Shown here: piece after piece, positions 3,543 through 64,000 of the stretch
Layout of the letters: every line of letters begins with the position of its first letter
Position numbering within the stretch: position 1 is the stretch's first letter
From: Allomyces macrogynus ATCC 38327
Lineage: Eukaryota; Blastocladiomycota; Blastocladiomycetes; Blastocladiales; Blastocladiaceae
Direction of reading: 5' to 3'
Length of the DNA stretch: 64,000 bases
Assembly: GCA_000151295.1 (NCBI GenBank)
Contig: GG745352.1
Span: 788,658-852,657, forward strand
Notes under the pieces: model-generated
Told to the model about the DNA's origin: nothing
The model's database searches: none
The model's input: the letters and a program-made list of their open reading frames with translations, nothing else
Made by a program: the position numbers and the translations under genes

Positions 3543-4310
3543 ATGACGTCGCTGTTCCCAACGTTGCCTGGTCACAAGCGACCGTTGACGCTCGAATGGC
3601 TCCCGCATGACATTCTGCTCGCCGTATCCCAACAATTATACGACTTGGACCGCGGTCTGTCGTTGTTCCAGCTTGCTCTTGCCTCGCTCGCCTTGTATGC
3701 TCCAGCGCTCTGCATTGCGATCCGGTATGCGATCCAGACATTTTGGAACCCAAACCACATATTATCAAGCAGGGGGAATGTGTCCTCAACTGTCCTGCCA
3801 AGGCTGCGTACACTGCGCCACGAATCTAATGCAACTCTGGGGGATACGCGGATTGCGCACTTGCTGGGCACGCTGCAGGTGCTCAGTTGACAAGCAAGGC
3901 CATGGAGCAACTGATGTTGCGGTTCCCAGAGCGTCCCTGGCATCGGCGTGTCCGCGTCCATATTCATGGCAGTATGGTGGGTTTCCAACAGACGGACATG
4001 ACGTTGCTGATGGAATGGTTTGATGTCCGCCAAGAATAAACGTCACAATTTGGACCTCATCTTCATGCCCTGCTTATTCTGTCGGCTCTAAAGCCCATCC
4101 GTCGCATGGGTTGTGACTCTCAAAAGTCTTGAAGGCATCATAGGCACTTTCTTGCAAAGTATACTTCAGGCTCGGCGCGGACCGTCATTTGGCTGGGACT
4201 GCCAAGTGTTTTGGGCAGCAACTCTGCCACCTCAACGTTGTGGCGAGATCTCAGCAACCACCGCGATGATTTGAACAAGTTTCGCACCGAGTTTAGGGTG
4301 CATCAAAAAA
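3543..4310 (+). pseudogene. Decayed F-box-like/LRR family copy (5' part)
   Basis: An ATG at 3543 opens a frame with the family's F-box-like start, LEWLPHDILLAVSQQL, followed by LALASLALYAPALCIAIRYA. This parallels LPNDVLLTLYDGM...FALATPIAYAPAI in the intact gene at 6173-7855. A further match, ATLGDTRIAHLLG, resembles LGETDVGHLVG of the gene at 8179-9747. The frame closes at 3890. Short protein-like stretches continue in other frames (for example VRVHIHGSMVGFQQTDMTLL near 3950-4020), so this is a relic with frameshifts. It lies on the plus strand, unlike the main array. Family membership is clear; the 3' boundary is a guess. Confidence 0.65.
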
Positions 4311-4487
4311 ACTTAATTGCAAGCGGTGGCAGTTGTGGGGGTCGATCGAGGAGTATGGGGTGGGTCGTCAAAAAGTGAGGAGCGTCTTGATGACAGCCAC
4401 AATACACACCCCTGCACACAGCGTGCGGCTGGCCGCGTCGCGCCCACTGAGACACTGCCCTCGATAAGTTGTGTACCGAGTTACTCT

Positions 4488-5107
4488 CGCTTGACGTTCA
4501 AGGTAAAAGATAAATATCGTTTCAAATCAGGGTTTAACGTAAAACGGTTGCAATTTAATGTCAAAACAGAAGCGGACTTGGTCCATCAAGCACACATGAA
4601 GCAAAGCAAGAGCGAAAAGACTTTTGCACTCGGAGCTGGACAATTCAGCTGCTAACGTGGACTTATGACGCGGAATGTCCGTATCCATGTCGGGGCAGTG
4701 TGCCAAGGCCGGTTGAAGGAAAGGTTCGGTGTAGTGCCATGAATCACCCAGTCATGATTCTAAACGTGCATTGCACGTTTGTTCTTTGAAGAATCTGCCC
4801 AACGCCGCCCTTTGCCATTGTGCACAGCTCTCTAACTTGCTTTGTATGGATCGCATCACTCGAGAAGAAAGAATTCTTTGTCTTTCGTCTCACACCGCTT
4901 CAGTCGTTAACCGACTTGGATCTGTCAACCCAGCATGAGCGCCTCTTTGTGGGCGACGAGCTTCAAGACAAGCAGCTAATAATCGATGCCGTGAGGCTTT
5001 TGGCATCGACGCGGGCTCTTGTAAAAAACTCATTCGGAAATGCTGCTGAATGTCGAGCCTTTCCACGACGAAAACCGAACAAGCACAAAAAGAACGTCAC
5101 ATCTTGA
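4488..5107 (+). other. Possible further LRR relic
   Basis: Short plus-strand stretches such as SRLTFKVKDKYRFKSGFN and LTPLQSLTDLDLS have LRR-like leucine spacing and follow the relic at 3543-4310 at about the distance expected for its LRR part. Similarity is weak and there is no continuous frame. The sequence could equally be non-coding. Confidence 0.25.
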
Positions 5108-5334
5108 ACCCAAGAGCGCATCAGCGCTGTCACCAACATCATACTGCAGCACACCCCTTGATTACGCGCAACCATATGTCCGACCCTGTTTAGCAGATGA
5201 TCAGTTAGAAAGTCCCGTTCTCCAGTCCTGGCCTTGCTGATCATGCTCTGTGGCCAATGGGGTGCTCCAACAAAGAATGGTGAGGTCTGCAGCACGGCCG
5301 CTCTGCCCCAGCGAGGGCATGTGGGGGTGCACGG

Positions 5335-5525
5335 GTGAGCAGAATCTCGTGATGCTTGGAAACAGAAAGCGATCCTTGGTGACGTCCTCTGGCGACTTGC
5401 GAACAGAAAAATAACCCCCTGGCAACACCGTTCCCTATCTCGCCGGCGTCGAGCTGGAGGGTGGCAGCCCCAGCTCCAATCGCGCGCGATTTCGATTTCG
5501 ATCCCGTTCCTATCCGCCAGTGAGC
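5335..5525 (-). repeat. Dispersed repeat, copy 1 (inverted relative to 35685-35870)
   Basis: Read on the minus strand, this segment matches the plus strand at 35685-35870 over about 180 bp by eye. Shared blocks include ttggagctgggg, agggaacggtgttgc, gggggtta and gaggacg, in the same order and spacing. The two copies are clearly diverged. No coding function or terminal structure is recognised. Confidence 0.7.
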
Positions 5526-6172
5526 CAAGACAGATCGCGATCAAAGAATGGACGCGTCCAGCAACAGCAACGAAGCAAAATCATTGTCGCGAGCTTGGTG
5601 TGCGCAGCTTCCGCTGCCGGCAACACTGCGTCGTCCCTCTCTTTTTTGCGTCGGCAAAGGCTTGGCAGAAGGCATTGAAACCATTGCCCCACGCTTGCCT
5701 GCAGCATTGACAGACCTCATGGTCAAGCAGTGATATCTCAGCCGCAAGATGTTGCGCCAGATCATTGGCTGCACTGATGCTTTGTGCTGGTATGGGGAAT
5801 GGAGGGCGGGAAATGGTCAAGGTTGATTGGAGTCGTTGTTTGACCGACCCACGTGGTCACATTTGTTCACTTTGGGAGTACGCGGCCAACACCCTGCAGC
5901 CACATTCTTCAAGCTCGGCGCCTTTGTCCCGATAACTTGCCATAAGGACATGTGACCCTTCCCGTCCTCGCTTTCGCAACGTCCAGCGACGCACAGATGT
6001 CCACACCCGATGTGCCGGCCAAACTGGGTCCACTCTCATGGCGCTCAAGCTGGACATTGGAAATGCTAACTTGACGTCTCTCCACCTTCCCCTTGCGCCG
6101 GGCGCCGTCAAATTCAGTCGAGGGTATCAACACGTAACAACATTAACGCGACAACCGTCACATCGACATGCA
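5526..6172 (+). other. Region without a firm gene; faint LRR-like traces
   Basis: Plus-strand stretches such as IETIAPRLPAALTDLMVKQ (about 5677-5733) and LMALKLDIGNANLTSLHL (about 6035-6090) look like LRR fragments of the local family. They are short and in no continuous frame, so no gene is called. Confidence 0.2.
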
Positions 6173-7855
6173 CTACCGCAAACCCTGCATCCTATAATTC
6201 ACTGACTCCTGGAGCATGGCCAGCGTCTCCGAGGAAATGCTTCGAGTGAGACTCAGACTCAGACGAACCACAACGATCCCATTTCCCATCTTGGTGCTTC
6301 GGTCAATCAAATGTTGCGCAATGTCGTCGCTCAGCCTGCAGTGCCGCACGGACAGGTGGCGCAGAGTCGACGGCAAGACCTTGATCCATGCCCCGTCAAG
6401 CGGCAGGTCACAATTATAGATGTCAAGCGTTTGCAAGTTCAAAGGCCAACCCGCCCGCGTATCGGTCACGGTGCCTTGATCAAATGGAAACACCGAGGCG
6501 AAAGAAGGTAGTGATGCTGCGGTCGTCTCTTCATGGCGACCGCGCATTGAAGAAACAGTGACGGACGGTTGCACCGTCGGGACGTTGCATCCTTGGAAGC
6601 CATGCAGCGCCAGGAACTGGAGCCCAGAGGGAACATGCAAGTTGGTGAGCGACGAAACCGCAATATTTCCGGGACGAGCCACAAGTGTGAGCGACGTGAC
6701 AGACGGCCGACAAATCCGCGCCACTTGCTCAACCATATCTGCGGACCACCACGGTGCATCAAGGCTCATACGGTCGGTTGCCATGGGCAAACCCTGGAGG
6801 AACTCGAGCATGGCCCGTTCCGCGGCAGCGATCCCGGCTGGACTAACTGAGACTGAGCGCCCATTCTCCAGCGTCGTCGCGACGGCAAGATCAATGACTT
6901 TCACGGCTCGCGGCCAAACAAATCGTGGACGCTGGGTGGGAAGATCGTCAGGGTCGACGTGGAACCCCAACCGCATTACATGCAAGTTTGGCGCCGCCGC
7001 GAGCGCAGCGAGCAGTTGCAGCGGCATCCTGTTCGGGCAATTCATGATACGAAACGTTTCGAGATGCAACAGTGTTGGAATCACATCGAGAAGCGCGCCG
7101 ATATTGGCCGCGACCGAATACGGCCCGCGGCTCACCAGCTCGAGCTGCTTGATCCCGGGCGGGCACGCGCGTAAGATAGTATCCATGAATTTGGCACGGT
7201 GATGCTCGTAGTACTTGATCGTCAGCCGACGGAGCGAGTTGCGCATGCTCGCCATGAACGCCTGTGCGATGTCGACGTCCATGTGGCACCATTGCAACTC
7301 GAGATGCGTAACTGTGCGCGGGACATCGTCCCAGTCACGGCGTTCATCAAACCATTCGCCGCCGACCGACAGTGTCGAGAGAAACGGCGGCAAGACACTC
7401 GGCATCCACTCGGGCTCGTCCCCGCGCGCCTGCAAATGCACATGTCGAATCGGGTCAAGGTTGCGAATCGGCAGTAGAGACCACGCAAGTGACCCTACGA
7501 GCCGGAAGGGGCCGCTGCAGCGTGTGTCCTGGCGGTTCTTGTCGCGCAGCGGCATGATCAAGTACCATTCCCCGACATGCAAGCGTGGGCAGCGTGCGTG
7601 GATCAAGTTGCCAATAACTTTTCGTGATTCCAGCCGAATGGTCTCGCCATGGTCGCGGAACTCGAAGCTCCACCGATTTGAGATCCCGCGAGCACGAGCC
7701 AGAGAGGCCTTGATCGCAGGCGCGTAGGCGATCGGGGTCGCGAGCGCAAACGAAAGGAGAGCATCGAGTCCGGCGTACTGCGCCATGCCGTCGTAAAGGG
7801 TCAGAAGCACATCGTTGGGCAAATGTTCAACGAGCGAGCGTGGCGGAACTGTCAT
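6173..7855 (-). CDS. F-box-like/LRR protein, intact family member 1 (560 aa)
   Basis: A single open exon of 560 codons. The start at 7855 lies just before the F-box-like motif EHLPNDVLLTLYDGM (residues about 10-25), which is followed by the family block FALATPIAYAPAIKA. Two family signatures follow, WYLIMPLRDKN (about 97-107) and AWSLLPIRNLDP (about 129-140). Irregular leucine-rich repeats run from about residue 150 to the C-terminus (for example LNLQTLDIYNCDLPLDGAW and STLRHLSVRHCRLSDDIA). F-box/LRR proteins usually act as substrate receptors of SCF ubiquitin ligases. Here the F-box is divergent and that role is inferred. No signal peptide or membrane segment is seen. It is the most 3' intact member of the minus-strand array. 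Confidence 0.85.
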   Translation of the reverse strand: MTVPPRSLVEHLPNDVLLTLYDGMAQYAGLDALLSFALATPIAYAPAIKASLARARGISNRWSFEFRDHGETIRLESRKVIGNLIHARCPRLHVGEWYLIMPLRDKNRQDTRCSGPFRLVGSLAWSLLPIRNLDPIRHVHLQARGDEPEWMPSVLPPFLSTLSVGGEWFDERRDWDDVPRTVTHLELQWCHMDVDIAQAFMASMRNSLRRLTIKYYEHHRAKFMDTILRACPPGIKQLELVSRGPYSVAANIGALLDVIPTLLHLETFRIMNCPNRMPLQLLAALAAAPNLHVMRLGFHVDPDDLPTQRPRFVWPRAVKVIDLAVATTLENGRSVSVSPAGIAAAERAMLEFLQGLPMATDRMSLDAPWWSADMVEQVARICRPSVTSLTLVARPGNIAVSSLTNLHVPSGLQFLALHGFQGCNVPTVQPSVTVSSMRGRHEETTAASLPSFASVFPFDQGTVTDTRAGWPLNLQTLDIYNCDLPLDGAWIKVLPSTLRHLSVRHCRLSDDIAQHLIDRSTKMGNGIVVVRLSLSLTRSISSETLAMLQESVNYRMQGLR

Positions 7856-8178
7856 CTTGGCGGCAGTGGCATGTGATAGTCGAGCGCGAGTCCTGCACGT
7901 AAAGGCGCTCGATGGATTGCCGAGCAGCGAGAGCTGTGCAGGAAGTGGGAGGGCGGGATGTATGGGGATTGCTCTTGCTGTAATGGCCGATATTGGAGGC
8001 GTGGAATGACATGCACAGTGGAACGCAGCCTATATCTGTCGTGACTCGTGAGATGCGATGTTGATGTGAGGAGATGAGAAGAGTCTGGCAAAATCATCAT
8101 AAATATCGGCCAACCACGAAATCAAACCGCTTCCAACGCGAAGCCCATCAACTGGCCGCTTGGGTTCGCATGCAGCAG
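7856..8178. other. Intergenic spacer between LRR genes
   Basis: Upstream region of the gene at 6173-7855 and 3' flank of the next one. It is AT-richer, and I see no gene or clear promoter motif in it. Confidence 0.4.
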
Positions 8179-9747
8179 CTACACGTACAGCTCGCGCAAT
8201 CCCTTGGGCAAGTGTGGAATCTTGCCATCCACAGGTAGCAGCCCACCCGACACGTCGAGCCGCCGCAGCGTGCGCGGCCACTGGCCAGCAAACTGTTTGA
8301 GGTCCTTGACGGAAATATCACAATCCGCGAGCGTGAGCGTCGCAAGTTGCGCCGGAAGATACCGCGCAAGAGCGCGAACCACGACCGTGCTGCCCAGCGC
8401 ACTCTCGCTCAAGTCGAGCTGTTTGAGCGACGGAGGAAGCCGTGGCATAAACACATTCGCAATCGTGCCGATATTGGCCTCGTCTGAGAAGAAGACCTGG
8501 AGCCGGTGAAGCGTCGACGCCAACGGCACGGTGCGGAGCATAGTCGCGTCCCAATCGGACACATCAATGTTTAGCTCGCGCGTGGCAGTCGGGAAATTGG
8601 GACCGACGAGACCAATCCGCCGTATTTGGGGATATGGGACACGCAGCTCAAGTGACTCGACAGTTGTTGGGAAACGTGGCGTCGGACGAGGAGGAGCAGG
8701 ACCAGTATTTCCACCGCCTTCTGCCGCTTCAAATCCAGCCTGGCCGGCCGCATCAAGAGCGTCGGGACCCTCGTCTTCGCTCTGGTCACCATGGTCAGCG
8801 CAAATAGACAGCTTCTTGAGGCCAGTGCGAGGAAGGGCAGCCAAAACCAAGTCGATCCCATCCCTGCCGCGCGGCACTGTCATGGAAAACGACGTCAAGC
8901 AGGGCAATCGGCGCACGAGCTCGGCAATCCCATGCACGTCGTCATCTGCCGCGTCATGACTGTATACTACAATGGTCGTCAATGCCGACGGAACGTGGGG
9001 CAAGAGCTGCTCGATAATCTTCGCCAACTGGCCCAGCTTGCTGTATGTCAACATGAGCGACTTCAAGTGGGCAGGGAGCGTTGCAAACGCTCGGCGAGCG
9101 TCCACGTCTCGCGCCGGAGAATTCATCAAATGGAGGGAGAGAAGCGACTCGGGGAACCGGAACTGGTGGTCGCGCCACGGTGCAGCAAGGTAAATAAACA
9201 TGCTCTCGCAGTGCGGCGGCAGCGCGAGACTCGGGTTCTTGCCAATAAGCTCAAACGTGCGACGCTGCCGCAGCGGGACGGGTAGTAGAGACCACTTTCG
9301 GGAAGCGCGACAGAGCTTCTTGTCCCGATGCAGGCCGGAACCCTTGACCAACGGCATCAGAGCTCCATGATGATCGCGCGGCGGCAGGATCAAGTAATAT
9401 TGGACGCGACGCGTCGCCTCGTCCGTCACGCCGACCAAGTGCCCGACATCGGTCTCGCCAAGATCTACTTCGTCCGGTTCAACCAGCTTGAGACGGCAGC
9501 GAGGTGAATCAAATCCGGTACCCGTGCGAATCGCGACTGTCATGCACGGTTCATACAGCGTCGACGCAGCGAGGGCGAGATGGAGCAGGTCGACCCGCGC
9601 AGACGACCAGGGCTCGCTCATAAACTCGGCGAGACGGTAGAGAGCATGGTACGGGAGCTGGTTGAGCGCGGCAAGTGTCGGCGCGGGTTCATCATGCGTG
9701 GCGTCCACCGCCGAGCTCTTGTGCGTGTCGCGTTGCTCGCCAATCAT
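8179..9747 (-). CDS. F-box-like/LRR protein, intact family member 2 (522 aa)
   Basis: The start is placed at 9747 (protein MIGEQRDTHKSS). The frame stays open upstream, but this Met aligns with MICEPG of the neighbour at 10175-11941. Order: F-box-like LNQLPYHALYRLAEFM (about 28-43), family block HLALAASTLYEPCMTVAI, first signature YYLILPPRDHHG, second signature SRKWSLLPVPLRQR, then LRRs such as SLKQLDLSESALGS and RTLRRLDVSGGLLPV, ending KGLRELYV. A low-complexity Asp/Glu/Gly/Pro linker interrupts the LRRs near residues 315-345. It is clearly the closest paralogue of 10175-11941 and of the truncated copy at 12780-13086, so these arose by local duplication. Its cellular role is unknown; an SCF adaptor is inferred from the fold only. 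Confidence 0.85.
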   Translation of the reverse strand: MIGEQRDTHKSSAVDATHDEPAPTLAALNQLPYHALYRLAEFMSEPWSSARVDLLHLALAASTLYEPCMTVAIRTGTGFDSPRCRLKLVEPDEVDLGETDVGHLVGVTDEATRRVQYYLILPPRDHHGALMPLVKGSGLHRDKKLCRASRKWSLLPVPLRQRRTFELIGKNPSLALPPHCESMFIYLAAPWRDHQFRFPESLLSLHLMNSPARDVDARRAFATLPAHLKSLMLTYSKLGQLAKIIEQLLPHVPSALTTIVVYSHDAADDDVHGIAELVRRLPCLTSFSMTVPRGRDGIDLVLAALPRTGLKKLSICADHGDQSEDEGPDALDAAGQAGFEAAEGGGNTGPAPPRPTPRFPTTVESLELRVPYPQIRRIGLVGPNFPTATRELNIDVSDWDATMLRTVPLASTLHRLQVFFSDEANIGTIANVFMPRLPPSLKQLDLSESALGSTVVVRALARYLPAQLATLTLADCDISVKDLKQFAGQWPRTLRRLDVSGGLLPVDGKIPHLPKGLRELYV

Positions 9748-10174: not shown

Positions 10175-11941
10175 CTAAACACGCAACTCGCGCAATCCAG
10201 TGGGCAGAAGGCTCATCACCTCGTTGGTCCGGGGCAGACACCGACCCGACACGTCGAGCCGCCGCAACGTTGGCGGCCAGCGCCCAGCCAACTGCACGAC
10301 GTCATTGATCGAGACGCCACAGTTTGCGAGCAAGAGATCGGAAAGTTGCGGCGGAAGGTACTGTGCAAGGGCAGGAACGAACGCCGTGCTGCCCAGAGGG
10401 CTGTCGCAAAAATCGATTCGCTGGAGCGACGCCGGCAGACGGGGCAAGAGCGCCGCCGCAATCGAATCCACATTGGCGTTCTCCGAAAAATGGACCTTGA
10501 GCCGGCGAAGCGTTGATGCGAGCGGCAACGTGCGAATCATGTTGGGACCCCAGTCTGACACGTCAATCGACAGCTCACGCGTGACCGTGGGGAAATCACG
10601 ACCGACGAGACCAATACGGCGCATATCGGCCGACAAGAGACGCAATTCAAAGAACTCGACCGTCGTCGGATAGCGCAACGTTGTGGGACGGGCAGAAGAG
10701 CGACGCCGAGCGAAAATGGGAGCGGCAGTCGCACTGGCGTCGCCGTTAGCATGCTGGGCAGGGCCAATCTCGTCCTCCACACCTACCCCAAGGCCATTCT
10801 CCGAGGCGTCAACATCATGGTCGGTGGTAGCATCATCGTCGTCGATATCCGAGTCCGTTTCGTATCCCAGGGCAAAACCCGAATCAAATGCGTAAACCGA
10901 CAACTTCTTGAGACCCGTCCGTGGAAGTGCGGCCAGAACATTCTCAAACTTTTCGCAGCAGCGAAGCAGCGAGATGGAGAACGTTGTCAAGTTGGGCATG
11001 CCGCCGACAAGTTGTGCGATCCAATGCATGTCTTCGCGCGTCGCCTTCTGGCCGTCCACGGTCATTGTCGTCAGCGTCGGAGGAACGTGGGGCAAGAGCT
11101 GCGGAACGACCATCGCAAACTGGTCTGGCTTACTGTACGACAGCGTCAGCCGCATCAAATGCCGAGGGAGCGTCGACAGCACTTGGCTCGCGTCAACACC
11201 TTCCGGTACGGTATTCCTCAAATGAAGCATCGCGAGCGACTTTGGGAACTGGAACTGCGGGTCACGCCACGGCGCGGCATGGTACAAGTACATGTACTTG
11301 CAGTGGGGCGGCAGAGCGAGACTCGGGTTCTTGCCAATCATGTCAAACGTGAGCCTCTGGCGCAGCGGGACGGGTAAGAGAGACCACTTCCGGGAGCAGC
11401 GGCTGGGCTTGATGCGCCCGAACCGTCCCTTGTCCTGGACCCACGGCAGCAGCGCCCCTTGGTGATTGCGCGGCGGCAAAATCAAGTAGTACTGGAGCCG
11501 GTCGGTCGCCACGTCGGTCACGCTGACCAAATGGCCAATCTCGTGTTCGGTCAAGTCGACTCGGTCCGGATAAACGAGACGAAGCCGGTAGTTGGGCGAA
11601 TTCATTCCGGTGCCCGTGCGGATCGCGGCAGCGATGCATGGCTCGTACAGCGTCGGTGCCGCCAGGGCGAGGTGCAACATATCGACGCGCGCAGGCAACC
11701 ACGGCTGGCTCATGCACTCGGCAAGTCGGTAGAGAACGTGGTACGGGAGCTGGTCGAGCGTAGGAAGTAATCGCGGCGCGGTTGGTGGCATCTCTGGTTC
11801 GGACCCTTGCGCGACGACGGCCGGACATGCAAGCGTGTCGGACTCGTGAACCATGACGTTGCTGCAAGCATTGCTCAACTCGGGTCCAGACCCTTGCGCA
11901 ACCTTGGCCGGGTGTGCGAGAGTGCCGGGCTCGCAAATCAT
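10175..11941 (-). CDS. F-box-like/LRR protein, intact family member 3 (588 aa)
   Basis: The start is placed at 11941 (MICEPGTLAHPAK), matching member 2. An open extension reaches 12355 but has no family similarity beyond the first few codons. Domain order: a duplicated N-terminal tract, F-box-like LDQLPYHVLYRLAECM, family block HLALAAPTLYEPCIAAAI, YYLILPPRNHQG, SRKWSLLPVPLRQR, then LRRs (for example ASLQRIDFCDSPLGS and PTLRRLDVSGRCLPR), ending TGLRELRV. An acidic linker (YETDSDIDDDDATTDHDVD) sits between the LRR blocks, at the place where member 2 has its own linker. Intact and closely related to member 2. Function inferred only from architecture. Confidence 0.85.
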   Translation of the reverse strand: MICEPGTLAHPAKVAQGSGPELSNACSNVMVHESDTLACPAVVAQGSEPEMPPTAPRLLPTLDQLPYHVLYRLAECMSQPWLPARVDMLHLALAAPTLYEPCIAAAIRTGTGMNSPNYRLRLVYPDRVDLTEHEIGHLVSVTDVATDRLQYYLILPPRNHQGALLPWVQDKGRFGRIKPSRCSRKWSLLPVPLRQRLTFDMIGKNPSLALPPHCKYMYLYHAAPWRDPQFQFPKSLAMLHLRNTVPEGVDASQVLSTLPRHLMRLTLSYSKPDQFAMVVPQLLPHVPPTLTTMTVDGQKATREDMHWIAQLVGGMPNLTTFSISLLRCCEKFENVLAALPRTGLKKLSVYAFDSGFALGYETDSDIDDDDATTDHDVDASENGLGVGVEDEIGPAQHANGDASATAAPIFARRRSSARPTTLRYPTTVEFFELRLLSADMRRIGLVGRDFPTVTRELSIDVSDWGPNMIRTLPLASTLRRLKVHFSENANVDSIAAALLPRLPASLQRIDFCDSPLGSTAFVPALAQYLPPQLSDLLLANCGVSINDVVQLAGRWPPTLRRLDVSGRCLPRTNEVMSLLPTGLRELRV

Positions 11942-11960: not shown

Positions 11961-12779
11961 TTTCTTGACGTGAAACAATGGAGGCGGCGGTCTGTTCTGC
12001 AGCTTGGGTGCAAGGCGGTGCGAGGAGTGCGGTGAGTGCAAGAAGCGACAGCGAGAGGCGACGGGTCGTCGCCATCTTTAACTTTTCCTCTCCGAATCCT
12101 CTCCGAAGAAGGACGAGAAGGAAAGGAGACTCCGGTCCGCCCCAAGACAGCAGACTGGCCTGTGATGCCATCAGGTGGAGGAGAGGTGGAGACTGGGTGG
12201 AGATTTGGGAGAGAAAGCTGCAGCCGTGTAACAGGTGGAAAGGCGTGAAGAGAAACGCCACCCGACTTGAAACCACCGGCACAACCTCGCCGTGCCTTTC
12301 TTCTAAGCGCCTCTCGACCGACCCTGCCGACGGCCCAACAAGTGACCAGTGTCAACCCTGGACATTGGACGAGAGAACAACGCGCGTCGGGCGAAGAGTC
12401 TCATGCCAGACTGCCAACAGTCAGCATGGCCGACTCGGATGCTTGCGGATGCTTGCTCACTTACAAGCGCCCTGTTACGCTCTTCCTTGCCCAGGGTTCA
12501 TAGAGTGTATCAATATGACGAAAGTATGCTCTCTACACGGCGCGGCGGGCTGCTCTGGCGTCGTGGCGATGCGGGATGGCGGCCATTTTACCAATTACCG
12601 CCGACCAAAGCTGCAGATGATGACGTCCCATGTACCAGGTCGTCAAGCTCCACATGCATCAATGCCAAAGACGTTCAACAGCAAACTGTGGAAGAGCAAT
12701 CAAGGCAATTCAAAGAACCTATCCCTCGAAAAAGTGGAATATAAAGACCATGGCGCTCCGCCATGCAATGAAGAATCGC
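11961..12779. other. Spacer upstream of family member 3
   Basis: About 800 bp with pyrimidine/purine-biased stretches, presumably promoter and 5' leader of the minus-strand gene ending at 11941. A plus-strand frame here shows no family similarity and is not called. Confidence 0.35.
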
Positions 12780-13086
12780 CTCACTTCAATGCCGCGAATT
12801 TCCACCTGACCCGGCTCGACGAGGCGCAGTTGGTCGACGGAAGATTCAGATCCAGCGCCCAGGCGGATCGCGACTTTGATACATAGTTCAAACGGAGTCG
12901 GTGCAGCCAGAGCGAAATGCAGCAGGTCAAAGCGCGAAGACAGCTAACATGGATCACTCACAAGCTCGGCGAGCCGAGGAAGAATGGAGTATGGCAGTTG
13001 GTCAGTGCGGCAGGTGACATTATCGACGCGGGTCCTGGTGCAGCGACCTCTGTTGGGCTTGTATTCATGCCGGGCTCGCCAAGCAT
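12780..13086 (-). pseudogene. F-box-like/LRR copy, 5' fragment only
   Basis: Starts with MLGEPGMNTSPTEVAAPG at 13086, matching MICEPG of member 3. After a frameshift near 13015 it continues QLPYSILPRLAELVSDPC, an in-frame TAG, then FDLLHFALAAPTPFELCIK, matching the F-box-like domain of members 2 and 3. Similarity ends around 12780 before the first beta signature, so the LRR part is missing. Confidence 0.8.
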
Positions 13087-13188: not shown

Positions 13189-15045
13189 TCATCCATAGCA
13201 CAATCTGTGACCCAATCCGCTCGCAGCAAGGAAAAACATGACAATTGTTTGGGCTCCAAAGAATAAACGTCTCTCTCTCATCCAGCCCTGCATTTCCTCT
13301 GGCAAAGTGCTCACATCCATCCCGAGCATGATCTTTTCGTGTGGACTGTTGCGCGGCAAGAGAGCGAGCAGCCACGGCGCCCATGCTTCCACATTCGTCG
13401 TCGACGGCAACTCGAGGTACCGCAACGAGCTCGGCAAGTCCACAATCCTTGCAGACTCTTCCTGCTTGAGCGAGTTGAGGCGGAGATTGAGCGCGAAGAC
13501 GCGGCGGAAGCGGGGCTGGGAGAGTGTCAATCTGGTTGAACGGCAAACGCAGGTGCGTCAGCGACTGCTGGCATTTCGTGATAGCTGCAAGGTCAGCGCG
13601 CCCGAGATGGCAATCAACGAGCGTTAGCGACTGGAGGCGCGGCGGCATATGGCGCGCCAGCAGCGCCATGGCACCGTTACCGGCCAGAGGCCACGATTCG
13701 AGACTCAGCGCCATGAGCCTCGTGGGCAGCCGCGGGAAAAGGTCACGGGGCTTTGCCGGATCGTCGCCGCGCGACAAGCTGAGCCGCGTCAGGCCCGAGG
13801 TGAGCGGCAGAGCCCGAACCGTATCGGCTTGCCAGAGCGACAAAAGAATGGTGAGGTCGCGCTTGATGTGCGGCGGCTTGAACGTGAGCGGTGGCTTGTA
13901 ATGTAGTGCAGACCGTCCTGGACAAAGTGCCACGCAAAATCGAGCGAGTCCAGGCCCGTGGGGATCATCGCGGCCATATCAGGGACCGCCTCGAGATCCG
14001 CAGGCTTTCGCATCGAAACCACGCGAATTCGAACACTGCGAAGATTCGGGCACTCGCACAGCGATTTCATGACGCCGTACGCCGCCCACTGGTTAGTATC
14101 GCCAGCGACGAGCTCAAGCGACTCGAGCTCGAGCGCCTTGAGTGCTGGGAGGCGGTTCACATGGTGACAAACGCCGCCACCCATTCTAGAGCCGACCAAT
14201 TGACATTGATTGCCAGCTTGCGCAACGTTCGTGGCAACAATGCAAAGATAGTTTGAAGACCAGACTCGTCTTCCAGCTCAGCCTCGGAAGAAATAGTCAA
14301 CGACTCGAGCGTCTCAGGCCACGCACGCGTCGGCTGGCTCGTGACTGTGGCAATGTGCGAAAAGTCGCAGAGCTCAGGATGCCGAATAGTGCGATTTGCA
14401 ATGGCCCGCCGAATCCTCTCTTCTTCGAGAGATCCTTCCAGATGCAGACGGCGGCAATGGAACGGAACGGCCCACAATTCGAGGTCGTAATTAATCGTGT
14501 AGTGCTGCAAAGTGTCGAATGGGACGGAAATCAACGACCATTTCACTGAAGCTACATGGACAGACGGAGCGCGGGCCATGTCGCGCTCGGGCAGGAGCAA
14601 TGACAACTGCTGTCGACCATCCATATCGAACGTGACCTTGACAAGTTTGCGAGCGCTCACGCCGAGGTAAACGACCAAAGCCTCGACTCGGTAGGCGGTT
14701 CCGACTTGTCATAGCCTTGGACATCACGGCGCAATGAAAAGCGGTCAGCGCCTGGGACAAAGACCCCAGCCACAGGACCCACGTCGCGGTTTGCAATGAG
14801 CACCTGGACTGCCGGCGCAAACAGGCCAGGTGCGGCGAGGGCAAGATAGGTCAAAGACTTGCGGTCGAGGACATGTAATAAAAACTGCAAATGTCGTTGA
14901 GAACGTCGATGCAAAGGTGGTCCAGAGCCAGTGGCTGCGGGCCGCGGCCTGGTTGCAGGCCACAATCATGATTGATTCGGGGTGGAATGCTTGGTGTGCT
15001 TGCTGATGGTTTCCGGTGTTGATGATGTTGCGTGAAGTCGAACAA
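13189..15045 (-). pseudogene. F-box-like/LRR copy, full length with several frameshifts
   Basis: Family parts occur in the correct order on the minus strand but in changing frames. F-box-like LDHLCIDVLNDICSF lies near 14900; then SLTYLALAAPGLFAPAVQ, SVKWSLISVPFDTLQHY (about 14510-14560) and LRR stretches such as PRTLRKLAINVNWSALEW follow. Next come LKALELESLELVAGD, then RLQSLTLVDCHLGRADLAA (near 13610), and a C-terminus SSLRYLELPSTTNVEAW. Frame changes fall near 14870, 14680, 14170, 13910 and 13530. The length matches an intact member, so this is a recently inactivated gene, unless the assembly carries errors. Confidence 0.8.
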
Positions 15046-15321: not shown

Positions 15322-17166
15322 TCAACCGACAACGCAAAACGACGCTTTCAACCGGTCCAGCTCCTCATCCGATAGCCCACCATCCTCCTCGGCCACACGC
15401 CACCCGCGCGCTACGAGATCATGGTCTAGCCACAGCGATAACCGCACCCGACCTGGCCGCGGCGCAATCCCGTTAATAAGCGCGCGGGCAAGCTGCTTGA
15501 CGGCATGCGCATCCAACGACCGTAGGTCAAGACACTCCACCGTGCGCGGCAAGTGGGCAAGCCATCCGGCCTCTTCGAACGGGTTCCCGCCGACGACGAG
15601 CGTACGTAGCCGCGGCGGCAACGGTCCAGGCAAGTCGGTCAACTTGTTGGCGCTCAGATCGAGGCGCGTCAGAGATAGCGGCCATCCACACTGCGCCAGC
15701 AGCAGAGCAACATCGTCGTGCGTCAAGTAGCAGTGGTGGAGCCGAAGCGAGGTCAATCGCGGCGGCCAGTGGTGCCCAAGAATGACGACTGTATCCTCAT
15801 CGCGCATCATCCACCACGACAGGTCGAGAGCGATGAGCGTGTGCGGCAAGTGCGGGAGCAGGTCGTTGAGAGTTTGTACTGACGTGGCCCAATTTGGTGG
15901 GTGCGGCGGTCCGTGCAGGCACAATCGGATCAGGCCCGTCGGGAAGGACAAGAGATGGGCCATTGACAGCCTCCACGGGGGCAAGTAGACCGTCAATTCG
16001 GACGCCGGCGGTGGCAGAGAGAGTACGAGCGGTGTGTCACAACACAGCTCGCCGCGGCGCAAAATATCGACCAGCCGCACCGTCAACGCGATCCTCTCAA
16101 GTTCCAGCGGCATGTGGCACATGAACTCGCAAAACTCCTCCAAATCCTTGCTCGACTCGATATGAATCGAATCGAGCACGAGCTCGCGGAGCCGCCAGAC
16201 TTTTCGGAGCGCACGCGCCAGGGTTTTGATACTCGACGAGCCACTGCGCAGATACGTTGACGTCAAGGCAAACGATTCTAGGCACACGAGGGTCGGGAGC
16301 GCGCGGACCAGCAGGGCAAACCCGTCCTCGTGAATCGTGCTGTTGAGCCACGGTAAACTCAACGAGAGCCGTCGGAGCGTCGTAGGCAACGAGCAGAATA
16401 GGCTGACAGGGATCTCGTCGTCGCCGCACGTTGTTGCAACTGGTTCCGCGACCGAATCAATGACCAGCTCGTGCAGTCGTGCCGGTTTCGCGCCAAAGAA
16501 CAGATCCATGACGCTCGTGTCGGGAAACGCAAACTGCTTGAGCTCCAGCCGCCGAATCGTATCGGGGACTGGCCGCGCCGACTGCGTGCCCTTGGCGTTG
16601 CCAATAAAACACATGGAGCGACATCGTGGCGGAACAAACCAGGCGATCTGATCGCTCCGCCGCGTAAAGAACTGCAGATTTTCCACGGGCACGGGCAGGG
16701 TCGACCACCGGAATGACAGGTGGTGCATTGCGCGCGCACTCGTCGCGATCCATGGGTGCGGTTGCGCAGCACGTTGCGGGTCGCGCGGCGGCAACAAGAG
16801 GAACCAGCGCGGTGGATAGAATTGCGCCCCGCCCTTTTTTGGATCAACTTGTACGGCAAACGTACCGATGCGGTAGTCGGTGGAGTACGAGTGGCCGCCA
16901 TGTAGTCGGAACCGGTCGTTGGCAAGGACGACACCCGTGTGGAATTCGGACCCAATGACAGCTTTGGGATCCCATGCGCCGCGCCAGGCGAATAGGGTGC
17001 GAATAGCGGGCACGAAAAAGGACGGCCCAACAAGGGCGAGGTGGGCCAGGGACGCGCGGTCGATGCGGTTGACAAACTTGCACACGGCCTGCAGAACGTC
17101 GATTGGGAGGTCCGACAGTGATTGTCGCGGATGAGAGCCGTCGATTGCTGATGGTGCAACGTTCAT
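15322..17166 (-). CDS. F-box-like/LRR protein, intact family member 4 (614 aa)
   Basis: Start placed at 17166 (MNVAPSAIDGSHPR), 16 codons before the F-box-like motif LSDLPIDVLQAVCKFV. The family block HLALVGPSFFVPAIRTLFA follows, then RWFLLLPPRDPQRA and SFRWSTLPVPVENLQFF. The LRR region is regular and long, including LPTTLRRLSLSLPWLNS, SLRLHHCYLTHDDVALLL and LTRLDLSANKLTDLPGPL. The tail PRTVECLDLRSLDAHAVKQL resembles the relic at 29532-29798. No membrane segment. It is the largest intact copy, and together with the damaged neighbour at 13189-15045 it represents a second subfamily in the array. Ubiquitin-ligase adaptor is the default guess for the fold. Confidence 0.85.
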   Translation of the reverse strand: MNVAPSAIDGSHPRQSLSDLPIDVLQAVCKFVNRIDRASLAHLALVGPSFFVPAIRTLFAWRGAWDPKAVIGSEFHTGVVLANDRFRLHGGHSYSTDYRIGTFAVQVDPKKGGAQFYPPRWFLLLPPRDPQRAAQPHPWIATSARAMHHLSFRWSTLPVPVENLQFFTRRSDQIAWFVPPRCRSMCFIGNAKGTQSARPVPDTIRRLELKQFAFPDTSVMDLFFGAKPARLHELVIDSVAEPVATTCGDDEIPVSLFCSLPTTLRRLSLSLPWLNSTIHEDGFALLVRALPTLVCLESFALTSTYLRSGSSSIKTLARALRKVWRLRELVLDSIHIESSKDLEEFCEFMCHMPLELERIALTVRLVDILRRGELCCDTPLVLSLPPPASELTVYLPPWRLSMAHLLSFPTGLIRLCLHGPPHPPNWATSVQTLNDLLPHLPHTLIALDLSWWMMRDEDTVVILGHHWPPRLTSLRLHHCYLTHDDVALLLAQCGWPLSLTRLDLSANKLTDLPGPLPPRLRTLVVGGNPFEEAGWLAHLPRTVECLDLRSLDAHAVKQLARALINGIAPRPGRVRLSLWLDHDLVARGWRVAEEDGGLSDEELDRLKASFCVVG

Positions 17167-17695: not shown

Positions 17696-17723
17696 TATGT
17701 ATCAATGCAGTGAACGAATCAGA

Positions 17724-18690
17724 TCAGCAACACCACAAAAACGCCTTTCCCAACCGTGCTCGCTGTTTCCCCGACAAGAGAGTGAAAGAGCAGCGCAACT
17801 CGACACGAACCGCGCGCTCCTCCCACACATGCTCCGTCCACGCCAACAAGTCTGGAATCCAGAGCGCAGCCACGTCCACCGCCTTCAAGCGGCAATACGA
17901 AATTTTGGGTGGGCCAACAGGGCAGCAAAACGGTGAGGTCGCGCAACATCTGTGGGAATTCCAGTCGCGTCGTCGCCTCAAGAAACGTTTTGCCACGTAT
18001 GTCCATTGATGACGTGACGGACAAGGCAAGTCGTTCCACTTGGGTAGGAAACTGCAATACTTGAGCAATCATGTCTGGGTGGCTGCCAATGTCATCACTA
18101 CCGAGAGAACGCGAAGGCGTGGAAATGACCTAAGTTCGCGAAGGAGCGCGAGCAAGGCGGGGATGTCGAGCTCTGGCTTTAAAAATACTGATACCAGGCT
18201 GTTCCAAACAGACGGCAAGTACTCGAGGAGCGGGTGAAGGCCGTCACAACTCCAATCCTACATCGCCCATGGCGCATCGATGACAAGCCAGCGAAGGGTC
18301 CCAGGGGCATGGCGGAAAATAACTTTGAGTCCCTGGAGGGGGAAAGTACCTAGATCGAAAGAGGAAATAATCGATAGCGAATGCACGACCGGGGGCCACG
18401 GCGTGGTCAAGAGGCTTGCAAACACCATCAAAGGGTTCACAATCGCGGAGCTCGAGATGCTGCACCGCATCTGGAATACAGTGCACCTCACTCCACTCTT
18501 CATTCGCATCATCGTCGTCACGACTGGCGCTGGTACTATCGCCAGTATCGTCAAAAGGATCTTCCAGGTCGCCAACAAAACGAAGCAACAGACACTGCGG
18601 AGGAATGAACCACTCGGGCTGGAGGTGGGTAACGGTGTTGAGCGTGAATGCAGAGTTTGCGGGGTCTTCGCAAGTCTGCCTTCAGTTCGC
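17724..18690 (-). pseudogene. F-box-like/LRR copy, truncated at both ends and frameshifted
   Basis: Begins around 18690 with LQPEWFIPPQCLLLRFVGDL, parallel to LQPEWSIPPECRLLRFVGDL of the next copy. It continues with AVQHLELRDCEPFDGV, APGTLRWLVIDAPW and TQVERLALSVTSSMDI. A C-terminal stretch reads WIPDLLAWTEHVWEERAVRV. The F-box-like part is absent and the LRR block joins directly to the C-terminus, so there is an internal deletion as well as frame changes. Confidence 0.75.
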
Positions 18691-18863: not shown

Positions 18864-20720
18864 CTAGTGTGACATCAAGGTCTCAGTCATCAAAACGCAA
18901 CAAAATGCATCCCCCAACTCCGTCCGTGACTCGTGCGACAATTTCTCGAAAGAGCCATGCAGCTCAGCTTGAACCGCATGGTGAACCCTAAACCAATCCG
19001 CCCACGTCAACAAATGCGGGACCCACGCTCCGATCACGTTCACCGACGACAGATCTAGAACACGCATCGTTTCGGGTCATGCTGTGACCCACGAGCCATT
19101 GCTCTCGCGCATCGAATTTCCATCAAGAGAAAGGTATCGCAACCGCGGCGGAACCACCGGAAGAAAACTCAAGACAGCGTTGCCCGGGAAATCAATGCGG
19201 CAAAGCGTTTCTGGCCACCCGTGCGCTACCAGCGCCATTAAGTCGTCAAATTTCAGGTCCCCGTTGCAGACCGTCAGCGATTCGAGGTGCAGCGGGAGAC
19301 GCTGCACGAGAAGTGCTTTCGTGTTGGCACTCAAGCTCCGTGAGCGCGCCTGGAAATCGAGCACGAGCACTTTGAGCGTGGCAGGCAAGTGCAGCAAAAT
19401 GTATGAAGTGGTACTGACGAATTCGAGCGACTCGATAAGCGTCAGTCGCTCAAGCGTGGGTGGTAAACCAATGGCCGGCGCTTGCGCATCCACCAAGTGC
19501 ACTTGCATGGTGAGGTTACGTAGTGCATGCGGGAACGTCAGGATCGAAGTGATACAGGAAGTCATGAGATTCTTGAGTGGGGCCGACACAATAGACATGG
19601 TAAGAAACACGACTTGGTTGGTGATGTTAAGCAGGGCGCCCAGCAGGTCTGGGTCGTCATTGATGTCTGCTGTCACGGAAAGGACCCGAAGTCGCGTAAA
19701 TCACCTCATGGTCGCGATAAAAAGTGTCAGCAAGTTTGGCGCATCCAGTTCGGCCGTCAATATCAATGACTCGAGGCTGTTCCAGACGGAGGGCAATATT
19801 TGAGGAGGCCCCGAACACCTGGGCGCCAGTCAGAGATCCACCAGGGCGCATCAATCACGAGAGAGCAGAGCGTCTTGGGCAAGTTATGGAAAATGTCCTT
19901 GAGCCCAGTTGCATTGAGACTATCCGACAGGTCGGAAACAATGGACAGAGAGTGGACAGAGAGTGGACAGAAAGTGGAGGACAGGAGGCCCCGACATCGC
20001 CAAGGGTCGTGCAATGCCGTAAAAAGACTCACAATCACGTAGCACAAGATGTTGAACAGAGTCCGGGAAATGGGGCATGTTGCACAATTCTCCATTTGCG
20101 TCGCTGTTGCTGTCAAATTCGCCACTATGGCCACGGAAGTCCAAGTCTCCAACAAAGCGCAACAATCGACACTCGGGAGGGATGGACCACTCGGGCTGAA
20201 GATTAGTGACTTTGTAGTACCGCACAGTTGACACCAGAACGGGGATGAGCGACCACTTTGCCGAAGGCGGCGTCGAGAACAGGGTCATGGGTCCGTTGTC
20301 TAGACTGCGGACCGTGCACAGTCACAGAGCGGCAGGAGCAAGTAACAGGAAAATGGACCATCTCGCCATCGAGCACAACATTGTCGTCATGGTCGGTTAC
20401 AACGCCAAACATGCCGGCCTCGTAGTGAAACGACGGCGATTGCGAGTCATCCTGTTGGCATTTCGCCAAACTTCCGCGGCCAGAACGTGGTCACATGTGC
20501 TGGAATACATGAGCCTGGTCGCAACTTCGCCGTTGTTTGGGTCGCAAGCGCCGTGGTACTGGACCAACGTTCGAATGGAATCCAAATACAGTGACCGCGC
20601 TGCAAGGGCGAGGTGCGAGAGAGCATGTCGGTTGACTTTGTCAAAGAGCCATGCAAATGGCTCGCAGGACCTCGGCTGGGAGCTGGTGCAGCGGGTTACG
20701 GGCACAGTTAGGCATGGGCA
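18864..20720 (-). pseudogene. F-box-like/LRR copy, full length with several lesions
   Basis: The F-box-like start HQLPAEVLRAICMAL lies near 20690. A one-base insertion follows, then VNRHALSHLALAARSLYLDS, SAKWSLIPVLVSTVRYYKV and RLLRFVGDLDFRGH. LPKTLCSLVIDAPWWISD comes next. A clean 199-codon LRR block spans 19077-19676 (for example LPPTLERLTLIESLEF and PETLCRIDFPGNAVLSFL). The C-terminus is WVPHLLTWADWFRVHHAVQ (18864-19067). At least four frame changes separate these parts. Its length matches intact members. An 11-bp unit repeats three times at 19942-19974. Confidence 0.8.
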
Positions 20721-20744: not shown

Positions 20745-21160
20745 AACAGCGTCATACTCTCCAGTGTGGGCGGCAGCACCAAGTCGGGACGTGCCCGGCT
20801 TATAGCAAAATGGGAGCCGGTCCGTTGATGCCTGCTCGGGTTTGCAGCCAAAGGGATGAAGCCAAAACGAGTCGCTACGCCGCCAAAACGAGTCGCTACG
20901 CCGCCAAAACGAGTCGCTACGCCGCCAAAACGAGTCGCTACGCTGCCCAAATGAGATCCCTGCAACGGTTTCGCCGCCGGTCAAATGGCATGCCCCGCGA
21001 GATTGAATTAAAGTTCGGATCGACAGCACGGAGCGGCCAGAGCGAGGTTCGAGAGAGCATGTCGGTCGATGTTGTTGATGGCCACACAAACGCAATGCAG
21101 GACGTCAACCAGAAGCTCGTACAGCAACAGTCGGGATGCGTTGTTGGACATTTGAAGTAA
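20745..21160 (-). pseudogene. F-box-like/LRR copy collapsed around a 21-bp satellite
   Basis: The minus strand begins with LLLYELLVDVLHCVCVAI and RHALSNLALAAP (family F-box-like region, about 21025-21150). After a frame change it reads SIRTLIQSRGACH. It then runs into four copies of a 21-bp repeat and resumes with an LRR shred, LVLPPTLESMTLL (near 20745-20790). Most of the gene is deleted. Confidence 0.7.
20861..20944. repeat. 21-bp tandem repeat, four copies
   Basis: Unit gccaaaacgagtcgctacgc plus one further c, repeated head to tail at 20861, 20882, 20903 and 20924. The copies are identical except for the last base of the fourth. The unit length keeps a frame open in both directions. It sits inside a broken LRR copy. 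Confidence 0.97.
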
Positions 21161-35684: not shown

Positions 35685-35870
35685 GTCGGAAAGGAACGAG
35701 GGTGAGATTGCGTGCAGTTGGAGCTGGGGTCCCTCACCCCCAGCTTGGCGCCGATGGGCTAGGGAACGGTGTTGCAAGGGGGTTAGATATCTGTTCTCAA
35801 TTCTCAGAGGACGGCACCAAGCATCGAGTCCTGTCTCCAAGTATCACTGCATCAATTCTGCTCTCCGCAT
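35685..35870 (+). repeat. Dispersed repeat, copy 2 (inverted relative to 5335-5525)
   Basis: See the copy at 5335-5525. Shared blocks here include ttggagctgggg (35718), agggaacggtgttgc (35761), gggggtta and gaggacg. Both copies lie beside broken members of the F-box-like/LRR family. No coding capacity is recognised. Confidence 0.7.
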
Positions 35871-61261: not shown

Positions 61262-61918
61262 CCCCATCATCACCTCGTTTGGCTAGCTTTCATTTGCGTC
61301 AAGTTAGTCTCGGTTTGCTATGTTGTCTGGCATTTTGAGTTGCTGTTGCTCGTTTTTGCATTATCCACGTTCACTGTCAATTCCTCTCTCCATCAATTAA
61401 ATCTCGATTTGCGTGCACTCACATGTCATAATTCAAGAGCGCGGATTCTCCAGCCCCGCGTCCGTGAATGGCCAGATTATTCAGGATCAATCAAAACGAT
61501 CTCATTCGCAAATCTCCACGTCAGTTCGAGAGCTTTGAGCAGGCGGCCTGTACCACGTCCTTCACTCGACACAAATGATTGGCCTGTTGTTTGAGCCAGC
61601 GGCGCACCACCTTCAAGTTTCGATTTCCAAGTCATTTACCTGATGGTCAGCAAGTATAAAATGCTAGCCGTCCCACCCGATTGGCCGTGCATCTTCGAAA
61701 ATCGTTGACAGCACATCTGACTCGCGCACCACATCGATTCACTCAGCATAAAACCAGCCGCCCGTGCCTGGCCGACGTCTCCTCTCCCCACGGTCGGCTT
61801 ATTCTGCGCATGCTCATTGTGCTCGCCCAGTCGACGGAGATCTTTCACCAAGCGCGACAACAAGGCGCACGAGTATTCTTCAATTTGGACGCAACTGCCA
61901 CGTTTGTTCAGAACAGCC
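61262..61918. other. Intergenic region upstream of membrane paralogue 3
   Basis: 657 bp, AT-richer, containing a TATA-like box at 61655. No gene supported. Confidence 0.45.
61655..61660 (+). promoter_or_regulatory. TATA-like box upstream of membrane paralogue 3
   Basis: tataaa in an AT-rich context, 259 bp before the start codon at 61919. Position is compatible with a core promoter and a 5' leader of about 230 bp. Supported by sequence only. Confidence 0.3.
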
Positions 61919-62950
61919 ATGGGATTCCGGTCTCTAGTCGCTGGACTACTTCAAGCTGCGGCCAACAGGGTGGTAAGTACTCTGGTTCACGCTCTGCACA
62001 ATCACGGTGCGCCTGCTGCACTGATCCCTCTAACTATTGGAGACCATGGCCGTTGTAGCAACCCACGAGTAACACCATGACAAGGAATGGAGAGCCTGTT
62101 GTCTCGGCACTTGTGGTGACCATTCAATTATTTGCCAGCGCTGCAGGATTCATTCTCGACGTAATGATGTTTCTTACGCTGCGTCCATCCAAGGTCACAT
62201 CGACGCAGCTTGGAAACTTGGAAAAGACACAGGCACGCGCAATGGCTCCAAAGCTCGTCTATAACGGCACACCTGTCATTCCGGCCCTGTTCTGGGCCTA
62301 CTTTGGCATTATCGTCATTGTCGCTGTCTTTAACTGGGGCGTGACAGGTATCCTCTTGCAGCGACGTTTGGGTCGCCACGACGGCAACAACGAATTCAAG
62401 AGGTGGATTGACAACGTGGAAATTACTGGCACCAAGTGGGTGACTGGGCTCACCTGGCTCGTGTGCTTTCTGGGGGTGGCCAATCTGAACATCATGCAGT
62501 GCCGTGCATGGGACAAGGGCTTTCTTGCTGCTCCAATTGAGACGGACAGGTTCTGGATGAACCTGGGAAAATGGGGTCTGTTCCAAGCTGTCATGGTTCG
62601 TACTTGCTTGACACAGGAACAAAATGATGAACCGGGTAGTTTTCTATCATTTCCATCATTGACAATTGTAGAACTTGGCCAAGCTCGGCCTGCAAATCTT
62701 CTTCCGCGTGCAATTTGATGGCCTGTGGCCACTGATCAAGGAAAACCACCTCATTTTTGCATCATGGACCAATGTTGTGATGCTCGTGACGCTCGCTGTT
62801 TCCGGGGTGACCACCGTCCTGAATATGTTTGTTTCTCTCATCACAATCATGGCGCAACAACCATCCGATGAGCGGACTCCACTTGTTGACCCGCCATCGC
62901 AGACCTGGGGTGAATGGGTTTGGAGTTTGTGGAATGGCTCATACAGGTAA
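61919..62950 (+). CDS. Multi-pass membrane protein of an unrecognised family, paralogue 3 (289 aa)
   Basis: Exons 61919..61972, 62059..62595 and 62672..62950. Introns are 86 bp (gtaagt...ttgtag) and 76 bp (gttcgt...ttgtag), both phase 0 and at the same places as in paralogue 1, with an identical gttcgt donor at intron 2. The first exon is again 18 codons (MGFRSLVAGLLQAAANRV). Conserved blocks: MFLTLRPSKVTSTQL, YNGTPVIPALFWAYFG, LNIMQCRAWDKG, AAPIETDRFWMNLGKWGLFQ and NLAKLGLQIFFRVQFDGLW. Four strong hydrophobic segments besides the first exon. The tail is short and acidic/Pro-rich, ending LWNGSYR. Intact, next to the damaged paralogue 2. Function unknown. Confidence 0.85.
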
Positions 62951-63257
62951 TCTCGTCGGCCAGTTTGTCATTTTTCATTTCATTTTGTTGGGGAAATTTT
63001 TTCCTGCTACAAATACATGCTCCCTAAAGCTGTGCAAATCACGTCGGGCCATGACCTTCAAATTCGGTTTTTGCCGCTTTTCTTGGTGGCCGAGGGAAAT
63101 GGCCTGCCATCAATCACAAGCAACCATATGCGTGTGATCGTGTTCCTACGGTCACCCCCTGTCCAACCCCTCCACACATCCAGCGACGCGTGAACCACGG
63201 TCTCCCTCCAAATTAATTCCTTATCACCGGACGAGATTGCGGCAAGATCAATTCCAT
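62951..63257. other. Intergenic region
   Basis: 307 bp, T-rich 3' flank of paralogue 3. No gene seen. Confidence 0.45.
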
Positions 63258-64000
63258 ATGGCATCAGTAATACCTGCAGCAGGGACCGAGAAGCGGATAG
63301 CAAGTGTCGCCAATCATTGCGCTCCGATCCCGCAGATTTTGGAGCAGCTTCCCGACCTTCTGCTCGCGTCACTTTGCAGCTGGCTGTTCACGCTTGGTAG
63401 CTCGCGCTCGGTCCTCGAATTTGCACTTGCTGCGCCCGCGTTTTATGCGCCCGCTATTCGTGTCACGATCCAAAATGCCAGCGAGTTTGCATTTCTTGAG
63501 CCTGACAGCCCAAACCAGCTCCACGTCGATCGCTCGAAGAGTGGATTGCTTGGGTCGTTTTGGGACGACGACAATGATAGTTCCGACGATGACGAGCATG
63601 CTGAAGAGCATGACGACTACGAGGAAGGGGACGAGACGGGCGCCACGGACGACGGCGACACGCACATTGGACGCCAATTCTATCCACCGCGTCCAGCCTA
63701 GCGCAAGCGCTTCTGTGGTCTTCCCTGCTTGGCGTCGCGCTATTGGACGCTCGTTCCCACCCCGGCGCGGCAGATCCGGTACTTCACCATCAGCGACGAC
63801 CTCGAGGACATTACCAATTTTGGCATGATCTCGCCGCAGTGCCAAAAATTGACGCTCGGTCCATTTCCGGACTTGAGTGACAACTTGCCGACCATTCCCT
63901 GGTCTGTCGAATGGCTCATGCTCGATAATTTAACAACGCGAAGCGACGGTTTTTGAGCGCGCGTTTATTCATGAAGCGCTGCTGCCAAACCTGCAGTCAT
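63258..64000 (+). pseudogene. F-box-like/LRR copy with frameshifts, cut by the window end
   Basis: An ATG at 63258 starts MASVIPAAGTEKRIASVANH. F-box-like LEQLPDLLLASLCSWLF and FALAAPAFYAPAIRVTI follow. A very acidic loop (DDDNDSSDDDEHAEEHDDYE) precedes IGRQFYPPRPA and a stop at 63699-63701. In other frames the second signature continues as RYWTLVPTPARQIRYFTI, then QCQKLTLGPFPDLSDN and WSVEWLMLDNLTTRSDGF. After another shift near 63950 comes FERAFIHEALLPNLQ. Like the relic at 3543 it lies on the plus strand. Its 3' end is outside the window. Confidence 0.7.

What the first reader, a model, noticed from the sequence alone, without database searches (positions are those of the whole stretch)
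3543..64000. Birth-and-death expansion of an F-box-like/LRR family: about 18 copies, four intact
Four open members (6173-7855, 8179-9747, 10175-11941, 15322-17166) and about 14 relics in every stage of decay occupy roughly a third of the window. The relics range from a nearly open copy (36060-37876) to single shreds. Most lie on the minus strand in two arrays separated by ordinary single-copy genes. Such fast turnover is typical of recognition proteins in conflict or self/non-self systems, but here it is only a pattern.
Basis: partly seen in the sequence, partly recalled or inferred. Interest (0 to 1): 0.75.

Follow-up and report, generated by a model that had tools for sequence, protein, structure and literature searches.

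The report
Decaying F-box-like gene family in Allomyces
An aquatic fungus carries a large family of proteins that probably choose which other proteins are destroyed, and this stretch holds four open copies beside about eleven broken ones; most births look old and losses go on, so this is probably ordinary gene-family drift and not an arms race.

Summary
A profile built without window sequence finds about 15 copies on a third of the window: four open, eleven broken (reader: about 18). The genome is Allomyces macrogynus. The family is genome-wide: about 164 places, 91 with a frame of 480 aa or more (76 of them without a stop in the match).

Assembly error does not explain what could be compared. 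In the related block on contig C67, D is intact, A is broken, C is a fragment, and B has no separate counterpart. The array at 36-43 kb faces an assembly gap and stays unchecked.

Outside near pairs and local arrays, full-length relatives are mostly near 35% identical. Relics still show dN/dS of 0.22-0.34. In the five closest pairs no 30-position block reaches 0.40 (highest 0.43 over seven pairs). So most births look old and losses continue; pairwise tests show no arms race but cannot exclude a few selected sites.

The LRR is clear. The N-terminus is only F-box-like: LPxDVL motif and three predicted helices, below every Pfam cut-off. Best reading: Skp1-linked substrate adaptors drifting as plant F-box families do. 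Skp1 binding is inferred.

The parts
3567..5727 (+). Relic (one or two copies): F-box-like piece 3567-3737 and LRR piece 5587-5727; a longer partial copy lies in the corresponding place on C67:87679-88110
6173..7855 (-). Copy A, intact, 560 aa; most divergent of the four; counterpart on C67:85774-87234 is broken
8179..9747 (-). Copy B, intact, 522 aa; tandem paralog of C (54% aa)
10175..11941 (-). Copy C, intact, 588 aa; A. arbusculus ortholog 94% (P0005); C67 keeps only a fragment of about 470 bases with one stop
12767..13006 (-). Relic fragment of the F-box-like part of a B/C-like copy
13285..14881 (-). Relic, profile positions 36-571 in five pieces
15322..17166 (-). Copy D, intact, 614 aa; intact counterpart on C67:83164-85008 (84% aa, dN/dS 0.19); A. 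arbusculus ortholog 90% (P0011)
17905..18636 (-). Relic, weakly recognised and heavily decayed; DNA 75% identical to C67:79436-79838
18894..20651 (-). Relic, profile positions 35-580 in pieces; a small part also present on C67:78932-79080, the rest lies near or in a run of N there
21026..21154 (-). Isolated F-box-like piece
36060..37864 (-). Copy E, nearly open relic; LRR part open for 515 aa, N-terminal part out of frame
38211..39896 (-). Relic, sister of E
40177..41117 (-). Relic, sister of E, with an internal deletion
41198..42979 (-). Relic, sister of E
63333..64000 (+). Relic running past the window edge to about 65046 in five frames; family pieces lie on C67:22481-23546

Best explanation
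A large family of F-box-like/LRR proteins in Allomyces, evolving by mostly old births and continuing deaths. Each protein most likely acts as a substrate adaptor: the N-terminal helical F-box-like segment docks on Skp1 of an SCF ubiquitin ligase and the LRR horseshoe holds the target for ubiquitylation. Tandem duplication made arrays; copies diverged for a long time under moderate purifying selection; single copies then die, and two related blocks of the genome have lost different ones. Shown here: the family, the LRR fold (by prediction), the copy states, purifying selection, differential loss, two Skp1 loci. Inferred: Skp1 binding, target recruitment, and drift as the main driver of loss.
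Against: No F-box model passes its cut-off in the four window proteins; D has a sub-threshold match, E 0.039. 2 of 32 members show a sub-threshold F-box match, best E 0.028. The family consensus lists no F-box match at E<=1. Only the first helix (17 columns) aligned in the profile comparison. The fold searches mainly matched the LRR, where NLRP proteins and ribonuclease inhibitors rank as high as or higher than FBXL proteins. No expression or binding data. Two recent duplicate pairs show that births have not stopped.
Confidence: 0.55

Rival explanations
1. Recognition proteins in conflict or self/non-self discrimination: the LRR surface changes quickly to track rivals, parasites or mating partners, and copies turn over fast.
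For: Many copies, tandem arrays, many relics; dN/dS several-fold above the two ordinary genes measured; two recent duplicate pairs; over seven pairs the most variable LRR positions have a higher ratio (0.40) than the most conserved (0.19).
Against: No 30-position block above dN/dS 0.40 in the five closest pairs and none above 0.43 in seven; variable LRR positions 0.29 and 0.40, all well below 1. Outside near pairs and arrays the next full-length relatives are at about 35-38%.
Confidence: 0.12
2. LRR scaffolds without a ubiquitin-ligase role: the N-terminal helices are a capping or docking segment that never binds Skp1.
For: F-box models fail at their cut-offs; 0 of 57 PF12937 hits and 0 of 49 PF00646 hits of the genome fall in the window.
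Against: Motif, three predicted helices and similarity of the first helix to F-boxes of the same genome; an N-terminal F-box before a ribonuclease-inhibitor-like LRR is the usual FBXL layout (recalled).
Confidence: 0.25
3. Artefact: the relics are intact or intron-bearing genes broken by assembly or sequencing errors.
For: Some single-base frame breaks exist, and the C67 counterpart of 36-43 kb falls in a 27.9-kb run of N, so that array could not be checked.
Against: Multi-base indels and a missing 5' end in A's counterpart, at 76% nucleotide identity; decayed DNA shared by both blocks; a deletion among the E sisters; two neighbouring ordinary genes are open in both blocks.
Confidence: 0.03
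4. Loss driven by genome doubling alone: redundant copies decay because a second block exists, independent of family dynamics.
For: Only 1 of 4 intact window genes keeps an intact counterpart on C67.
Against: Some copies are broken in both blocks. The E array has four broken members, and the best full-length relative elsewhere in the assembled genome is 38% identical; its own C67 counterpart is in a gap. The two ordinary genes compared stay open in both blocks.
Confidence: 0.15

Closest known systems
F-box/LRR proteins (FBXL; e.g. FBXL2, COI1, TIR1)
   Different: F-box below every curated cut-off; the second half of the F-box is not recognised; a connector with the motif WSLLPVP lies between the helices and the LRR
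Lineage-specific plant F-box families (PMC3030570)
   Same: Large, lineage-specific, many pseudogenes, relaxed purifying selection
   Different: A fungus; most births here look old; two related blocks with different losses
FNIP/FGxxFN LRR proteins of Dictyostelium and giant viruses (PMC9525666, abstract and passages seen)
   Same: Large LRR families with repeats ending in LP; 6 of 32 members give a Pfam FNIP match, best E 8.9e-6
   Different: The FNIP/FGxxFN signature is not in the family consensus
RipG/GALA F-box-LRR effectors of Ralstonia
   Same: LRR sequence and fold match to the RipG4 LRR domain
   Different: The match is to the LRR only, among many other LRR proteins; common descent was not tested

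Membership tests
F-box/LRR (FBXL) proteins | F-box domain recognised by a curated model | tested here: not met
   0 of 4 window proteins over cut-off, D sub-threshold at E 0.039; 2 of 32 members sub-threshold, best E 0.028; consensus none at E<=1
F-box/LRR (FBXL) proteins | Three-helix N-terminal fold of the F-box type | tested here: inconclusive
   Three helices predicted in both models; profile probability 43-46% over 17 columns, controls under 0.5%; the fold searches barely tested this part
F-box/LRR (FBXL) proteins | C-terminal LRR of the ribonuclease-inhibitor type | tested here: met
   Pfam and alignment of predicted models
F-box/LRR (FBXL) proteins | Binding to Skp1 and Cul1 | not testable with these tools
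   Two Skp1 loci exist in the genome; Cul1 was not searched; binding not measured
FNIP-repeat LRR proteins | FNxxhxxxIP / FGxxFN repeat signature | tested here: not met
   Not in the family consensus; 6 of 32 members have some Pfam FNIP match
Birth-and-death multigene family | Tandem copies, pseudogenes, and copies kept or lost differently in related blocks | tested here: met
Rapidly evolving conflict/allorecognition receptors | Excess amino-acid change at the recognition surface | tested here: inconclusive
   Variable LRR positions at dN/dS 0.29 (five pairs) and 0.40 (seven pairs), no block above 0.43; pairwise counts cannot exclude a few selected sites

The most novel reading that the evidence does not exclude
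Allomyces has its own class of ubiquitin-ligase adaptors, about 160 loci with an F-box variant that standard models miss and a private connector domain. Because the related blocks of its genome keep different members, the family could set which subgenome's proteins are degraded and act in hybrid incompatibility between Allomyces lineages.
Probability: 0.1. Interest if true: 0.7.

Novelty: new variant of a known kind. Interest (0 to 1): 0.35.

Why it matters
A family of this size that standard F-box models do not detect would be missing from counts of fungal ubiquitin ligases. The paired blocks on C51 and C67 give a natural comparison for asking which F-box-like genes survive duplication of a chromosome region and why. 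If Skp1 binding were shown, it would define a divergent F-box class in an early fungal lineage.

Tried and rejected
Introns as the cause of frame breaks: rejected for copy E, whose break lies in sequence shared with three sisters with small indels; not tested for each relic. Assembly error: rejected for the copies that can be compared with C67, open for the 36-43 kb array. Positive selection in the LRR: not found by pairwise counts. A giant-virus source: the scan of viral contigs with the family alignment failed, because no stretch is conserved enough, and I did not pursue it; undecided. Taxonomic range: three protein searches returned 7, 3 and 7 rows, all Allomyces apart from the window's own B, which is listed without a source; each scored only about 8000 candidates and missed most of the family itself, so absence elsewhere is not shown. 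Counterpart of B in other species: none, same caveat. A was not searched in the protein database. Fold families that do not appear in the lists are not excluded; a fold search of D by Foldseek alone was not run.

Papers: nine searches listed, by title and start of abstract, none that describes this family; only open-licence papers are held. In PMC10406608 I saw passages only: Allomyces is not named in its main text and F-box occurs once, in a figure legend. PMC3030570: abstract and sections 10 and 13. PMC9525666: abstract and passages.

Counting: the DNA pattern for WSLLPVP (30 places, control 3) gives single motifs and was not used. The genome-wide count came from rows typed by hand; rows at places already typed were left out. 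LRR-only rows may include unrelated LRR genes, unscored candidates are missing, and the merging rule matters: 174 places (96 with frames of 480 aa or more) with the narrow rule, 164 (91) with the wider one.

Full report
What the window is. Protein matches place it in Allomyces macrogynus ATCC 38327. The family member AMAG_12125 and the cluster of copy B are both listed on a contig of 891,640 bases. AMAG_05677 (P0013) has the length and the identity to D (84.25% over 616 columns) of the frame at C67:83164-85008. In the held genome the window is C51:788658-852657, in 54.0 Mb and 75 contigs. Copies C and D have orthologs in A. arbusculus at 94% and 90% identity with consecutive locus tags (GGF31_006091 and GGF31_006090).

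Copies in the window. The four frames of the finding are open and homologous to one another, although A shares only about 22% identity with B, C and D. A profile from 27 members outside the window finds 38 stretches, none in the reversed window. I read these as about 15 copies: A, B, C, D intact and 11 broken. The right-edge copy continues past the window in five frames. Copy E is open for 515 aa, but its N-terminal part is out of frame; an alignment with its three sisters shows small indels there rather than an intron.

Size of the family. Six protein queries against the genome, merged from hand-typed coordinates, give 164 places with the wider merging rule; 91 lie in frames of at least 480 aa, 76 of these without a stop inside the match; five contigs making up 13.6% of the bases hold 112 of 164. 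These are rough numbers. The family shares a clear consensus: LDxLPxDVLxxIA, then QWYLVLPPRD, then SRKWSLLPVP, then LRR units of the form LPxxLxxLxL.

The related block. C67:23423-91581 corresponds to parts of the window from end to end, in reverse. It carries an intact D (84% aa), a broken A with several multi-base indels and no 5' end, a fragment of C of about 470 bases with one stop, and no separate B. Decayed DNA of window 17.7-19.1 kb is shared by both blocks, although as a family relic it is only weakly recognised. C67 has a further relic at 80.5-81.5 kb where the window keeps only short remnants, and the window has relics at 12.8-14.9 kb that C67 lacks. These differences do not fall in the N runs of C67; the counterparts of window 19.1-21.6 kb in part, and of 29.4-56.5 kb nearly whole, do. 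So the array at 36-43 kb could not be compared. That A. macrogynus is polyploid is recalled; the calls show only paired blocks.

Selection. By Nei-Gojobori counts D against its counterpart has dN 0.079, dS 0.416, ratio 0.19; valyl-tRNA synthetase and a membrane gene of the window have 0.03 and 0.055. Among 31 members compared, 17 have a relative above 45% identity and 14 have none above 43%; the 17 form 9 pairs, of which 8 have ratios of 0.19-0.32, and the ninth (99% identical, dS 0.006) is uninformative. Pooled over the five closest pairs (dS 0.3-0.7) the ratio is 0.26: 0.23 in the F-box-like part, 0.30 in the connector, 0.26 in the LRR, 0.29 at variable LRR positions; the highest 30-position block is 0.39. 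Over seven pairs the pooled ratio is 0.30, variable LRR positions 0.40 and the highest block 0.43. In D alone, 60-codon blocks range from 0.05 to 0.43. Relics still show ratios of 0.22-0.34: A against its C67 relic 0.29, C against its fragment 0.22, E against its sisters 0.29-0.34 with dS above 1.1. A ratio between an intact gene and a relic mixes both histories, but the values suggest that copies lived long as constrained genes before they died. dS above 1 is near saturation.

Age of births. In whole-genome searches, the next full-length relatives outside the own pair or array are at about 35% for C, 35% for D, 36% for L018 and 38% for E; shorter, broken pieces reach higher values for A and L018. 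Recent births exist: a 99% pair on C48 and a pair with identical scores on C51, both inverted.

Reading. The simplest account is a family of divergent F-box-like/LRR adaptors with mostly old births and continuing deaths, as described for lineage-specific plant F-box genes (PMC3030570). The adaptor function rests on weak F-box evidence and remains an inference.

Noticed in passing
G000:C51:74131-75882 and 102440-104191: Two family members with identical scores in opposite orientation about 28 kb apart: recent inverted duplication or assembly artefact.
   Followed up: no
G000:C48:398528-400198 and 435639-437309: A second inverted pair, 99% identical in protein.
   Followed up: partly
G000:C57:934016-934156 and 981366-981506: Two PF12937 F-box hits with identical scores in opposite orientation.
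   Followed up: no
window 5349-5493 and 35704-35847: An inverted pair of about 145 bases, 79% identical, the only two copies found in the genome; the second lies about 210 bases downstream of copy E, perhaps a duplicated 3' flank.
   Followed up: partly
P0010 (A. arbusculus): A protein annotated as a calcium channel carries a family fragment in its first half: perhaps a gene model that fused a relic with its neighbour.
   Followed up: partly
P0006 (A. javanicus): The ortholog of C lacks the WSLLPVP segment in its annotation, which may be a wrongly predicted intron.
   Followed up: no
window 46000-47520: A chitinase-like gene (name recalled from its sequence) has a 72-74% identical relative on C67:92660-94000, next to the ValRS counterpart and outside the expected order.
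   Followed up: no
G000:C67:27724-55662: A 27.9-kb run of N lies opposite the broken array at 36-43 kb of the window.
   Followed up: no
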